Positions 4,341 through 43,968 of a stretch of DNA of 64,000 nt are shown piece by piece. Position 1 is the first letter of the stretch, and each line of letters opens with the position of its first letter. The translations under genes were made by a program, and so were the position numbers. This stretch comes from Kribbella sp. ALI-6-A. GTDB taxonomy: Bacteria > Actinomycetota > Actinomycetes > Propionibacteriales > Kribbellaceae. The DNA lies in assembly GCF_001984195.1 (NCBI RefSeq), contig NZ_MTQN01000012.1, positions 558,001 to 622,000 on the forward strand, written 5' to 3'. The notes under the pieces are model-generated. The model had not been told where the DNA came from. It saw only the letters and a program-made list of their open reading frames with translations, and did not search any database.

Positions 4341-5309
4341 ATGCTGACCCTTGACGACGTACTGGCCGCGGCGGACCGGATCGAAGGGGCGGCGCACCGG
4401 ACGCCGGTGCTGACATCGCGCACGCTGAACGAGCGGGTCGGCGCCGAGGTGTTCCTCAAGGCGGAGAACTTCCAGCGGATCGGGGCGTTCAAGTTCCGCG
4501 GCGCCTGCAACGCGGTCAGCCGGTTGACCGCGGCCGAACGCGCACGCGGCGTCGCGGCGTACTCGTCCGGGAACCACGCCCAGGCCGTCGCGCTCGCGGC
4601 CGCGCTGGCCGGGACGCGCGCGGTGATCCTGATGCCGGCCGACGCGCCGCCGACGAAGGTCGCGGCCACCGAGGGGTACGGCGCGGAGGTGGTCCGCTAC
4701 GACCGCTACACCGAGGACCGGGCGGCGCTGGCGGCGAAGCTGTCGCAGGATCGCGGGCTGACGCTGATTCCGCCGTACGACCACTACGACGTGATGGCCG
4801 GGCAGGGCACGGTGGCGCTCGAGTTGATCCGGGAGGTCGGCCCGCTCGGCGCGCTGCTCGTCCCGGTCGGGGGTGGCGGGCTGATGGCCGGCTGTGCGAC
4901 CGCCGCGACCGCGTTGTCGCCCGGCATCCGGATGATCGGCGTCGAGCCGGCCGCGGGCGACGACCACGCCCGCTCGCTGGCCGCCGGGCACCGGGTCGAG
5001 ATCGAGGTGCCGCGCACGATCGCCGACGGGCAAGCGATCTCGTCGCCGGGCGAGCTGACCTTCGCGGTGAACCAGCGGCTGGTCGAGGCGTTCTCGCTGG
5101 TGTCCGACGACGAGATCCGGGCGGCGATGGCGTTCGCCTTCGAGCGACTGAAGATCGTGCTCGAGCCGAGCGGTGCGAGCGCCCTGGCGGCACTGCTGGC
5201 GGGCCGCGTCGAGGACCTCCCGGACCGCGTCGGTGTCGTGCTGTCCGGCGGCAACGTGGGCCTGCAGAGGTTCCAGGAACTGCTCGGCGAAGGGCAGCCT
5301 GAGCACTGA
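4341..5309 (+). CDS. PLP-dependent threonine/serine dehydratase-like enzyme
   Basis: Fold-type II PLP enzyme of 322 residues, a single catalytic domain without the regulatory ACT domain of biosynthetic IlvA. The PLP lysine is K51 in the motif FKFRGACNA. SSGNHAQA (about 75-82) and the phosphate-binding glycine loop VGGGGLMAG (about 173-181) follow, and SGGNVG is near the end. The size and motifs fit catabolic threonine/serine ammonia-lyase, serine racemase or threo-3-hydroxyaspartate dehydratase, which cannot be separated by eye. It begins 18 bp after the beta-helix gene, without functional connection. The 3' end is followed by CRP-type boxes that belong to the next gene or to this gene's terminator region. 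Confidence 0.88.
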   Translation: MLTLDDVLAAADRIEGAAHRTPVLTSRTLNERVGAEVFLKAENFQRIGAFKFRGACNAVSRLTAAERARGVAAYSSGNHAQAVALAAALAGTRAVILMPADAPPTKVAATEGYGAEVVRYDRYTEDRAALAAKLSQDRGLTLIPPYDHYDVMAGQGTVALELIREVGPLGALLVPVGGGGLMAGCATAATALSPGIRMIGVEPAAGDDHARSLAAGHRVEIEVPRTIADGQAISSPGELTFAVNQRLVEAFSLVSDDEIRAAMAFAFERLKIVLEPSGASALAALLAGRVEDLPDRVGVVLSGGNVGLQRFQELLGEGQPEH

Positions 5310-5310
5310 C

Positions 5311-5326
5311 TGTGCGCGTTGTCACA
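5311..5326. promoter_or_regulatory. CRP/cAMP-receptor-type box 1
   Basis: TGTGC-GCGTTG-TCACA matches the CRP consensus TGTGA-N6-TCACA at nine of ten positions. It lies 2 bp after the dehydratase stop and 32 bp (centre to centre, about three helical turns) upstream of a second, perfect box. Confidence 0.6.
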
Positions 5327-5342
5327 CAGAGCAACTTCGTAC

Positions 5343-5358
5343 TGTGACGCAGGTCACA
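5343..5358. promoter_or_regulatory. CRP/cAMP-receptor-type box 2 (perfect consensus)
   Basis: TGTGA-CGCAGG-TCACA is an exact palindromic CRP consensus with the correct 6-bp spacer. It is upstream of the c-di-AMP riboswitch of the NlpC/P60 hydrolase gene. CRP control of resuscitation and cell-wall hydrolase genes is known in other actinobacteria (rpfA). The candidate -10 lies about 150 bp downstream, which is far for classical activation. Confidence 0.7.
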
Positions 5359-5437
5359 AAAACCGCTCTGCGGCCGCCTGAAAGCCGCTCAGACACGCTC
5401 AGGACACCTGATGTTCAGCCGAGGTTGCTGACCCGTC

Positions 5438-5471
5438 AGAGACCCACTGAGGGGCTTTCAGAAGGGTCTCT
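5438..5471 (+). terminator. Hairpin downstream of the dehydratase gene
   Basis: AGAGACCC (5438-5445) pairs with GGGTCTCT (5464-5471), and the loop contains a small CTGA/TCAG helix. The loop segment GGCTTTCAG (5453-5461) is also complementary to CTGAAAGCC at 5378-5386, so an alternative long-range pairing exists. Termination of readthrough before the riboswitch promoter is the simplest reading. Confidence 0.45.
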
Positions 5472-5485
5472 GTGGATTTGAGGGT

Positions 5486-5513
5486 TTGCGTCGTGACCGT
5501 CCTGTTATACAGT
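5486..5513 (+). promoter_or_regulatory. Candidate promoter for the riboswitch-NlpC/P60 transcript
   Basis: TTGCGT at 5486-5491 and TACAGT at 5508-5513, spaced 16 bp, resemble sigma-70-type boxes. The predicted start near 5520 leaves a leader that contains the whole riboswitch. Confidence 0.4.
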
Positions 5514-5555
5514 CGTCGGCGGTTCGACAAATACTTCGAACTGCATGTGTGTCAA

Positions 5556-5724
5556 CGCCGAGCCCTGCCAGGCACACATGTTCCCCTCGAACACCATGGC
5601 AGGGGTGGGGGACCCAGGATGTTGGGTCCCGGCTGTGAGTGGCCGGGTCCCTGGGGTGAAGTCCGCGGGAGCGGACCGGGCGATCGACTTCCAGCCCGAA
5701 CCCGACAGCTAACTCCGCAGGCGT
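5556..5724 (+). ncRNA. c-di-AMP riboswitch (ydaO-yuaA class)
   Basis: The leader carries the hallmark conserved blocks of the ydaO/yuaA class in order: CGCCGAGCCCTGCCAGG near 5557, GGGGGACCCAGGA with its partner TGGGTCC near 5608-5630, GGGGTGAAGTC near 5653, CAGCCCGAACCCGACAGCT near 5692, and AACTCCGCAGGCG at the 3' end. The class binds cyclic di-AMP and is known to precede resuscitation-factor and NlpC/P60 wall hydrolases in actinobacteria. The ribosome site GGGAG (5726-5730) follows immediately, so control of translation start or of transcript extension are both possible. In most members the ligand turns expression off. Confidence 0.92.
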
Positions 5725-5736
5725 CGGGAGACAACC

Positions 5737-6582
5737 ATGCCCGTCACTGTCCGACGGACAGCGCTTCTGCGCGCCGTCACCACGAGCGAATCCAGTACCC
5801 GGCCGACCGGACGGACGCTGGCCAAGCACCGCAAGACCAGCAAGTCCCCGGCCCCGCGGGCCGCGGCCGCCGTCCTCACGGTCGGCCTGGCCGTCTCCGG
5901 TGGAGCGGCGCTCACCGTCGTGGCCCCCGCCGACACCGCCCACGCGGGAACCTCGAAGACCACCTCGGCCGCCTGGGCCCGGGGCAACAAGCCGATCAGC
6001 ACCAAGCCGCTGCTGCGCTACGCCGACGCCGGCTCGGCCGTCCGCTACGTGCAGCGCTCGCTCGACGTCCCGGCCGGTGGCTGGTACGGCTCGGCGACCC
6101 GCACCGCGGTGGCGAACTTCCAGCGCCGGGTGGGCCTGCCCCGCACCGGCACCATGACCGTGAACACCTGGCGCTCGCTGTTCTACGCCGCCAACCACGG
6201 TCTGCTGCACCGTGGCTCCGGCAAGGCGACGACCTTCCAGGCCAAGGTGCTGCGTGAGGCCGCGAAGCTCAAGGGCACGCCGTACCGGTACGGCGGCACC
6301 ACCCCCAAGGGCTTCGACTGCTCCGGCTACACCGGCTACGTCTACAAGAAGGCCGGCAAGAAGCTGCCCCGCACTTCGCGCCAGCAGTACAGCGCCACCA
6401 AGCACCTGAGCCGCAAGGCCGCCAAGCCGGGCGACCTGGTGTTCTTCAAGAGCGGTGGCGGCGGCGTCTACCACGTCGGCATCTACGCCGGCAGCAACAT
6501 GCTGTGGCACGCCTCGAAGCCGGGCCGCCCGGTCGCGAAGGCGAAGATCTGGAGCTCGAACGTGGCCTTCGGCCGCGCCTGA
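5737..6582 (+). CDS. Secreted NlpC/P60 peptidoglycan endopeptidase with peptidoglycan-binding domain
   Basis: Exported cell-wall hydrolase of 281 residues. A long basic N-terminus leads into a hydrophobic stretch and a cleavage site near PADTAHA (about residue 70). A PG_binding_1 domain (about 88-150, RYADAGSAVRYVQRSLDV and FQRRVGLPRTG) precedes an NlpC/P60 domain (about 165-281). The catalytic cysteine is C195 in FDCSGYTGYVY, and the histidines are H246 (VYHVGIYAG) and H258. It should cut stem-peptide bonds in peptidoglycan. The start has GGGAG six bases upstream, directly after the c-di-AMP riboswitch. Expression is therefore likely tied to c-di-AMP level and possibly to CRP through the two upstream boxes. 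Confidence 0.95.
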   Translation: MPVTVRRTALLRAVTTSESSTRPTGRTLAKHRKTSKSPAPRAAAAVLTVGLAVSGGAALTVVAPADTAHAGTSKTTSAAWARGNKPISTKPLLRYADAGSAVRYVQRSLDVPAGGWYGSATRTAVANFQRRVGLPRTGTMTVNTWRSLFYAANHGLLHRGSGKATTFQAKVLREAAKLKGTPYRYGGTTPKGFDCSGYTGYVYKKAGKKLPRTSRQQYSATKHLSRKAAKPGDLVFFKSGGGGVYHVGIYAGSNMLWHASKPGRPVAKAKIWSSNVAFGRA

Positions 6583-43705: not shown

Positions 43706-43743
43706 GGCGACCGTTCCTCCAACACCTCGTGGACGGGACGCGT

Positions 43744-43905
43744 CGTGGCCGGTCTCCTGGCTGACGGGACGACCGCATCCGTCGAGCTGACCTTCCCAGT
43801 CCGGCAGGGACCAGTGGTCTCACAGCACGTGAACGCTCGTCGGACAATCCCGATCACAGTGGCGAGGGCCGCGCCGGTTCCACACCGGCTTCCCGAACAC
43901 CACGA
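43744..43905 (-). ncRNA. Cobalamin riboswitch
   Basis: On the minus strand the conserved blocks occur in order: GGGAAGCCGGTGTGGAACCG, GCGCGGCCCTCGCCACTGTG (the B12 box region with GCCACTG), GACCACTGG, CTGGGAAGG, and finally GTCAGCCAGGAGACCGGCC. It ends 38 bp before the binding-protein ATG. The class usually turns expression off at high adenosyl- or hydroxocobalamin. Confidence 0.93.
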
Positions 43906-43968
43906 CGCCCACACGGTAGCTCACCTTGCGACGCGGTCGCAGCACCTGGTCCGGCCGCCAGGACGCCG

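What the first reader, a model, noticed from the sequence alone, without database searches (positions are those of the whole stretch)
5311..5737. Two CRP-type boxes three helical turns apart upstream of a c-di-AMP riboswitch and an NlpC/P60 hydrolase
Seen: TGTGC-N6-TCACA and TGTGA-N6-TCACA with centres 32 bp apart, then a complete ydaO-yuaA riboswitch, then a wall hydrolase. Known: c-di-AMP riboswitches precede rpfA and NlpC/P60 genes in actinobacteria, and CRP controls rpfA in some of them. Inference: cAMP and c-di-AMP are integrated on one wall-hydrolase gene. The boxes are more than 150 bp from the predicted -10, so looping or an additional promoter is implied.
Basis: partly seen in the sequence, partly recalled or inferred. 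Interest (0 to 1): 0.65.

Follow-up and report, generated by a model that had tools for sequence, protein, structure and literature searches.

The report
Paired CRP sites before c-di-AMP-controlled hydrolase
In the soil bacterium Kribbella, a cell-wall-cutting enzyme gene carries two matched binding sites for the cAMP-sensing regulator CRP, held at a nearly fixed distance from the promoter in all 38 species checked, followed by an RNA switch for a second messenger (c-di-AMP); similar double control is already known in related bacteria, but this distant, rigid two-site layout has not been described in the papers I could read.

Summary
Window 5311-5326 and 5343-5358 are two palindromic CRP-type boxes, 32 bp apart; RF00379 (c-di-AMP riboswitch) matches 5546-5737 at 65.7 bits (cut-off 38); 5737-6582 encodes a PG_binding_1 + NlpC/P60 protein. 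The window is Kribbella. All 38 Kribbella genomes held have both boxes in front of this gene. Box 2 lies exactly 161 bp from the -10 anchor in 37 and 160 bp in the window's genome. The two boxes are 32 bp apart in 36, 33 in one and 42 (one helical turn more) in one. No insertion or deletion was seen in 5359-5526, although its spacers differ by 31-44% between species; a 3' flank control of 130 nt shows 53 gap events. The genome has one clear CRP orthologue, near nth, with the M. tuberculosis CRP recognition helix. Only one TANNNT -10 is conserved (5508-5513), so the boxes centre near -169 and -201. No second promoter is conserved. Two further conserved blocks lie between boxes and promoter. Best reading: CRP acts from a distance in a phase-locked complex with an unidentified partner; the riboswitch then acts, probably on translation. 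Dual cAMP/c-di-AMP control of wall hydrolases is already known (S. coelicolor rpfA, C. glutamicum nlpC).

The parts
5311..5326 (.). CRP box 1 (TGTGCGCGTTGTCACA), centre about -201 from the predicted start
   Evidence: present in 38/38 Kribbella; 10 of 18 columns invariant
5343..5358 (.). CRP box 2 (TGTGACGCAGGTCACA), centre about -169
   Evidence: 161 bp to the -10 anchor in 37/38, 160 in this genome
5387..5416 (.). conserved block with two direct repeats GCTCAG 10 bp apart, then GGACACC and TGTTC; candidate site of an unidentified second regulator
   Evidence: mean pairwise difference 0.11 against 0.40-0.44 in the spacers beside it; in the 13 genomes searched, the exact or 1-mismatch copies lie at this locus, the other hits have 2 mismatches
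5428..5439 (.). conserved CTGA-NCCG-TCAG block; second candidate protein site
5486..5513 (+). core promoter: -35-like TTGCGT (5486-5491), 16-bp spacer, -10 TACAGT (5508-5513), predicted start about 5520
   Evidence: only TANNNT conserved at a fixed place on either strand, 38/38; within 5477-5526, 36 of 50 columns are invariant
5519..5544 (+). stem-loop at the predicted 5' end of the transcript (GCGGTTCG...CGAACTGC), loop of variable length
   Evidence: (z -4.3 against column shuffles for 5515-5560)
5546..5737 (+). c-di-AMP (ydaO/yuaA) riboswitch aptamer, RF00379; P1 arms 5556-5559 and 5720-5723
5726..5730 (+). Shine-Dalgarno-like GGGAG, 2 nt after the aptamer's P1; no room for a terminator before the start codon
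   Evidence: sequence; alignment to RF00379; no terminator-like site found
5737..6582 (+). 281-aa PG_binding_1 + NlpC/P60 putative peptidoglycan hydrolase
4341..5309 (+). upstream co-directional PLP-dependent enzyme gene (threonine-dehydratase-like by eye); its stop codon ends just before box 1

Best explanation
The leader is a two-messenger control region for a wall peptidase. Two CRP dimers bind the boxes on the same face of the DNA, three turns apart, about 169 and 201 bp upstream of one promoter (5486-5513). Because they are too far to touch RNA polymerase directly in the usual class I or II way, they probably act through a bent or looped, phase-locked complex with another regulator bound to the conserved blocks at 5387-5416 and 5428-5439. 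The sign of the effect (activation is my guess) is inferred. The mRNA then starts with a short stem-loop and a c-di-AMP aptamer whose P1 ends 2 nt before the ribosome-binding site, so c-di-AMP probably turns the gene off mainly at translation. Shown here: sites, spacing, conservation, single conserved promoter, presence of CRP and DAC genes. Inferred: CRP binding, looping, partner, sign, translational mode.
For: Both boxes in 38/38 genomes; box 2 to -10 anchor 161 bp in 37/38 and 160 in one; box spacing 32 in 36, 33 in one, 42 (+10) in one. Zero gap events in 5359-5526 across 38 genomes, although spacers 5359-5384, 5419-5429 and 5442-5476 differ by 0.40, 0.44 and 0.31 on average; the adjacent 70 bp upstream (5240-5309) has 11 gap events, the riboswitch 16 and the 3' flank 53 in 130 nt. 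Twin pattern found in 30/38 genomes with zero mismatches, once per genome except one extra pair in one genome; the other 8 differ by one base of box 2 or by box spacing. CRP orthologue (L050, 234 aa) matches M. tuberculosis CRP at 257.9 bits with the identical stretch AQLVGASRETVNKALADFA; nth lies beside it (by eye). DAC-domain gene present. Only one conserved TANNNT. RF00379 65.7 bits. C. glutamicum nlpC: GlxR, MtrA and EsrR sites plus a riboswitch that probably acts on translation (PMC9960051).
Against: No binding or expression data. All conservation is within one genus; in the loci sampled from other families the twin boxes are absent. Fixed spacing could reflect continuous protein coverage rather than a loop. 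The partner is unidentified; the blocks do not match the published MtrA direct-repeat motifs. The 42-bp spacing is a single natural case. Gap events were counted as distinct runs, not placed on a tree. In this genome the one-base gap falls right after box 2 (counted with box 2 by the aligner).
Confidence: 0.55

Rival explanations
1. CRP at the boxes drives a second, closer promoter (start near 5392-5425), giving a longer leader that runs through the riboswitch.
For: Canonical CRP activation needs sites near -41, -61 or -71; box 2 would suit a start near 5392, 5412 or 5422. Block 5387-5416 is conserved.
Against: No conserved -10 (TANNNT) within 200 bp upstream of the core promoter anchor on either strand except TACAGT at 5508; sequence just downstream of box 2 (5359-5384) is unconserved; no promoter-like site by consensus scan (which also misses the conserved promoter, so weak). 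Non-sigma-70 promoters are not covered by the test.
Confidence: 0.15
2. CRP at the distal boxes is part of a repressing complex: the same rigid array holds the promoter off when cAMP is high.
For: Rigid spacing fits repression loops as well as activation; in M. tuberculosis no sign pattern is seen for sites distant from the start (PMC4117774).
Against: A review reports that S. coelicolor rpfA is under Crp and that another wall hydrolase, SCO5466, is lowered in the crp mutant (PMC5693915), and M. tuberculosis rpfA is among the genes most activated by CRP (PMC9645806); but these are other genes. No promoter-proximal CRP partner site was seen.
Confidence: 0.2
3. The boxes serve something else: an antisense transcript into the upstream gene, a roadblock to read-through, or chromosome organisation.
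For: Boxes start 2 bp after the stop codon of the upstream co-directional gene; many CRP sites in M. tuberculosis are intragenic.
Against: The distance to the downstream promoter is fixed while the upstream side is full of gaps (11 events in 70 bp), and no -10 on the minus strand is conserved in the region scanned, which starts near the boxes.
Confidence: 0.05
4. The boxes are bound by another regulator (a second CRP/FNR protein or MtrA) rather than the CRP orthologue.
For: The genome has other Crp-type HTH genes, e.g. L051; Nocardioidaceae riboswitch genes carry TGTGAC direct repeats like the mycobacterial MtrA motif.
Against: The boxes are inverted repeats, not the 9-bp direct repeats of MtrA, and the main CRP has the same recognition helix as M. 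tuberculosis CRP, which reads TGTGA-N6-TCACA-like sites.
Confidence: 0.05

Closest known systems
Corynebacterium glutamicum cg2402/nlpC leader (PMC9960051)
   Same: NlpC/P60 wall peptidase gene; c-di-AMP riboswitch without terminator, probably acting on translation; sites for a cAMP-dependent CRP-family regulator (GlxR) plus response regulators MtrA and EsrR in the promoter region.
   Different: Here two CRP boxes stand in fixed register about 169 and 201 bp upstream; the other conserved blocks do not match MtrA motifs; the protein has a PG_binding_1 domain. Positions of the C. glutamicum sites were not compared here.
Streptomyces coelicolor rpfA (St-Onge et al. 2015, read through reviews PMC10117811 and PMC5693915)
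   Same: Wall hydrolase gene under both Crp and a c-di-AMP riboswitch.
   Different: RpfA is a lysozyme-like enzyme, not NlpC/P60; reported to act by early transcription termination. In the Streptomyces-like riboswitch loci sampled here, no CRP palindrome with at most one mismatch was seen upstream.
M. tuberculosis whiB1 promoter with CRP and PhoP (PMC9645806)
   Same: CRP sites combined with a direct-repeat response-regulator site; the authors suggest looping.
   Different: Other gene and no riboswitch known to me; the PhoP repeats lie at -97 to -80, closer to the start than the boxes here.

Membership tests
c-di-AMP (ydaO/yuaA) riboswitch, RF00379 | full-length covariance-model match above the gathering score | tested here: met
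   65.7 bits against 38, model positions 1-134
c-di-AMP (ydaO/yuaA) riboswitch, RF00379 | c-di-AMP binding and gene control | not testable with these tools
   needs in-line probing and reporter work
CRP binding site | TGTGA-N6-TCACA-type palindrome | tested here: met
   box 2 matches all 10 consensus bases, box 1 nine of ten
CRP binding site | conserved in orthologous leaders | tested here: met
   38/38 Kribbella genomes
CRP binding site | CRP protein with matching recognition helix in the genome | tested here: met
   L050 protein, identical to M. tuberculosis CRP over AQLVGASRETVNKALADFA
CRP binding site | bound by CRP in a cAMP-dependent way | not testable with these tools
   no binding data
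class I or II CRP-activated promoter | CRP centre near -41 or about -61 to -92 of a start | tested here: not met
   centres near -169 and -201 of the only conserved promoter; start predicted, not mapped
NlpC/P60 peptidase | Pfam NLPC_P60 above cut-off | tested here: met
   96.7 bits against 23
MtrA site | direct repeat GTCACAgcg or GTnAC-type repeat | tested here: not met
   the boxes are inverted repeats and blocks 5387-5416 and 5428-5439 lack such repeats on reading (motifs)

The most novel reading that the evidence does not exclude
Paired CRP dimers act as a phase-locked, enhancer-like element from about 170-200 bp upstream of a sigma-70-type promoter, working only together with an unidentified actinobacterial regulator on the blocks at 5387-5439, a layout not described for CRP in actinobacteria in the papers read.
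Probability: 0.35. Interest if true: 0.6.

Novelty: new variant of a known kind. Interest (0 to 1): 0.4.

Why it matters
It extends joint cAMP and c-di-AMP control of wall hydrolases to another actinobacterial genus and gives an unusually clean natural test of how CRP can act from far upstream: spacing to the promoter is preserved to one base pair while the DNA between drifts, and one species has gained almost exactly one helical turn between the sites. The conserved blocks point to an unknown partner that can be looked for directly.

Tried and rejected
Chance: rejected. Conserved RNA in 5359-5485: RNAalifold z -1.8 forward, +1.8 reverse, not convincing against -5.3 for the riboswitch; the inverted repeat CAGAGACCC...GGGTCTCTG (5438-5473) in the window is not kept in the other leaders. 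A z of -3.8 for 5310-5420 forward is explained by the two palindromic boxes pairing with each other. Small ORF in the region: no frame open in more than 10 of 38 genomes. Second copy of the 5387-5408 block elsewhere: only 2-mismatch hits of the kind expected by chance. Shared leader in the sister family f4: its riboswitch genes (RpfA-like and others) have unrelated upstream DNA. Paper searches for tandem distal CRP sites found nothing relevant.

Full report
What is there. The window lies in a Kribbella genome (G000:C7:558001-622000; orthologues all Kribbella or Kribbella-like). Between a PLP-dependent enzyme gene (4341-5309) and a 281-aa PG_binding_1 + NlpC/P60 gene (5737-6582) are, in order: CRP box 1 (5311-5326), CRP box 2 (5343-5358), two conserved blocks (5387-5416 and 5428-5439), a core promoter (TTGCGT 5486-5491, 16 bp, TACAGT 5508-5513), a 5' stem-loop (5519-5544) and a full c-di-AMP aptamer (5546-5737; RF00379, 65.7 bits, cut-off 38).

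More than chance. The two boxes are the only TGTG-N8-CACA sites in 64 kb, with 0.69 expected. A pair with a 4-34 bp gap occurs once in the 8.1-Mb genome, here; the reversed control pattern gives none. The exact twin is found in 30 of 38 Kribbella genomes, once each except one extra unrelated pair in G013. Reading all 38 leaders shows both boxes in every one; the eight 'misses' of the exact pattern have one changed base in box 2 or a changed spacing.

Rigid geometry. Box 2 to the TGTTATACAG anchor is 161 bp in 37 genomes and 160 in the window's own. The boxes are 32 bp apart in 36, 33 in G023 and 42 in G031, i.e. one helical turn more. In the alignment of 38 leaders, 5359-5526 has no gap event although three spacers inside differ by 0.31-0.44 between species; the 70 bp upstream has 11 events, the riboswitch 16 and 130 nt of 3' flank 53. 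Because the distances between anchors are constant, this does not depend on how the aligner places gaps. Events were counted as distinct runs, not mapped on a tree.

Where transcription starts. Across offsets -200 to +39 from the anchor, TANNNT is found at one place in all 38 genomes (TACAGT, 5508-5513) and at no other place in 15 or more, on either strand. The predicted start is about 5520, which puts the stem-loop at the very 5' end and the boxes at about -169 and -201. That is outside the usual class I and II ranges (general knowledge of CRP), so direct contact with polymerase is unlikely without looping or a partner. The conserved blocks between are candidates for that partner's sites. Their exact form is not repeated elsewhere in the genomes searched and does not match published MtrA motifs.

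Who binds. The genome has a CRP orthologue (L050) matching M. tuberculosis CRP structures at 257.9 bits with an identical recognition-helix stretch, next to an nth-like gene, and a DAC-domain gene for c-di-AMP synthesis. Binding itself is not shown.

The riboswitch. P1's 3' arm is 5720-5723, GGGAG is 5726-5730, the start codon 5737; no terminator-like site was found. There is thus no room for a terminator after the aptamer. C. glutamicum nlpC has a terminator-less c-di-AMP riboswitch that probably acts on translation (PMC9960051), and the same is most likely here (inference).

Compared with what is known. Joint cAMP and c-di-AMP control of a wall hydrolase is known: S. coelicolor rpfA (reviews PMC10117811 and PMC5693915) and C. 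glutamicum nlpC with GlxR, MtrA and EsrR. No paper holding both 'Kribbella' and 'c-di-AMP' was found in the library. I therefore call it a new variant of a known kind. The strange and testable part is the far-upstream, phase-locked CRP pair.

Limits. No experiment; one genus; promoter and start are predicted; the library lacks most subscription papers, including the original rpfA work.

Noticed in passing
L112, L114, L123, L128, L150, L152, L154, L157, L165, L166, about 115-185 nt upstream of the riboswitch: Nocardioidaceae-like (family f3) riboswitch-controlled genes carry TGTGAC direct repeats with a 9-bp period (10 of 37 leaders with at most one mismatch; 0.11 expected from shuffles). They are the complement of the mycobacterial MtrA motif GTCACAgcg, suggesting MtrA plus c-di-AMP control there.
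   Followed up: partly
G000:C6:1077261-1077422 (-), L002: A second c-di-AMP riboswitch in the same genome (63.2 bits), before a 505-aa reading frame; similar loci in some other Kribbella (L147).
   Followed up: no
window 43730-43919 (-): Cobalamin riboswitch, RF00174, 83 bits.
   Followed up: no
L014 (NZ_JAAGLV010000016.1): Record titled Streptomyces sp. SID13031 has the Kribbella leader and gene; the matching genome G027 is placed in the same genus as the window, so the name is probably wrong.
   Followed up: partly
L133 and L136, about 371 nt upstream of the riboswitch: Two sister-family loci with M23-type hydrolase-like proteins have one strong CRP palindrome at the same far distance.
   Followed up: no
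L051: A second CRP/FNR-type protein beside a reading frame with a possible nucleotide-cyclase-like domain (by eye).
   Followed up: no
L027 (G013:C1:1460303-1460350): The one extra twin TGTG-N8-CACA pair with the same spacing in the genus, without the conserved promoter.
   Followed up: no
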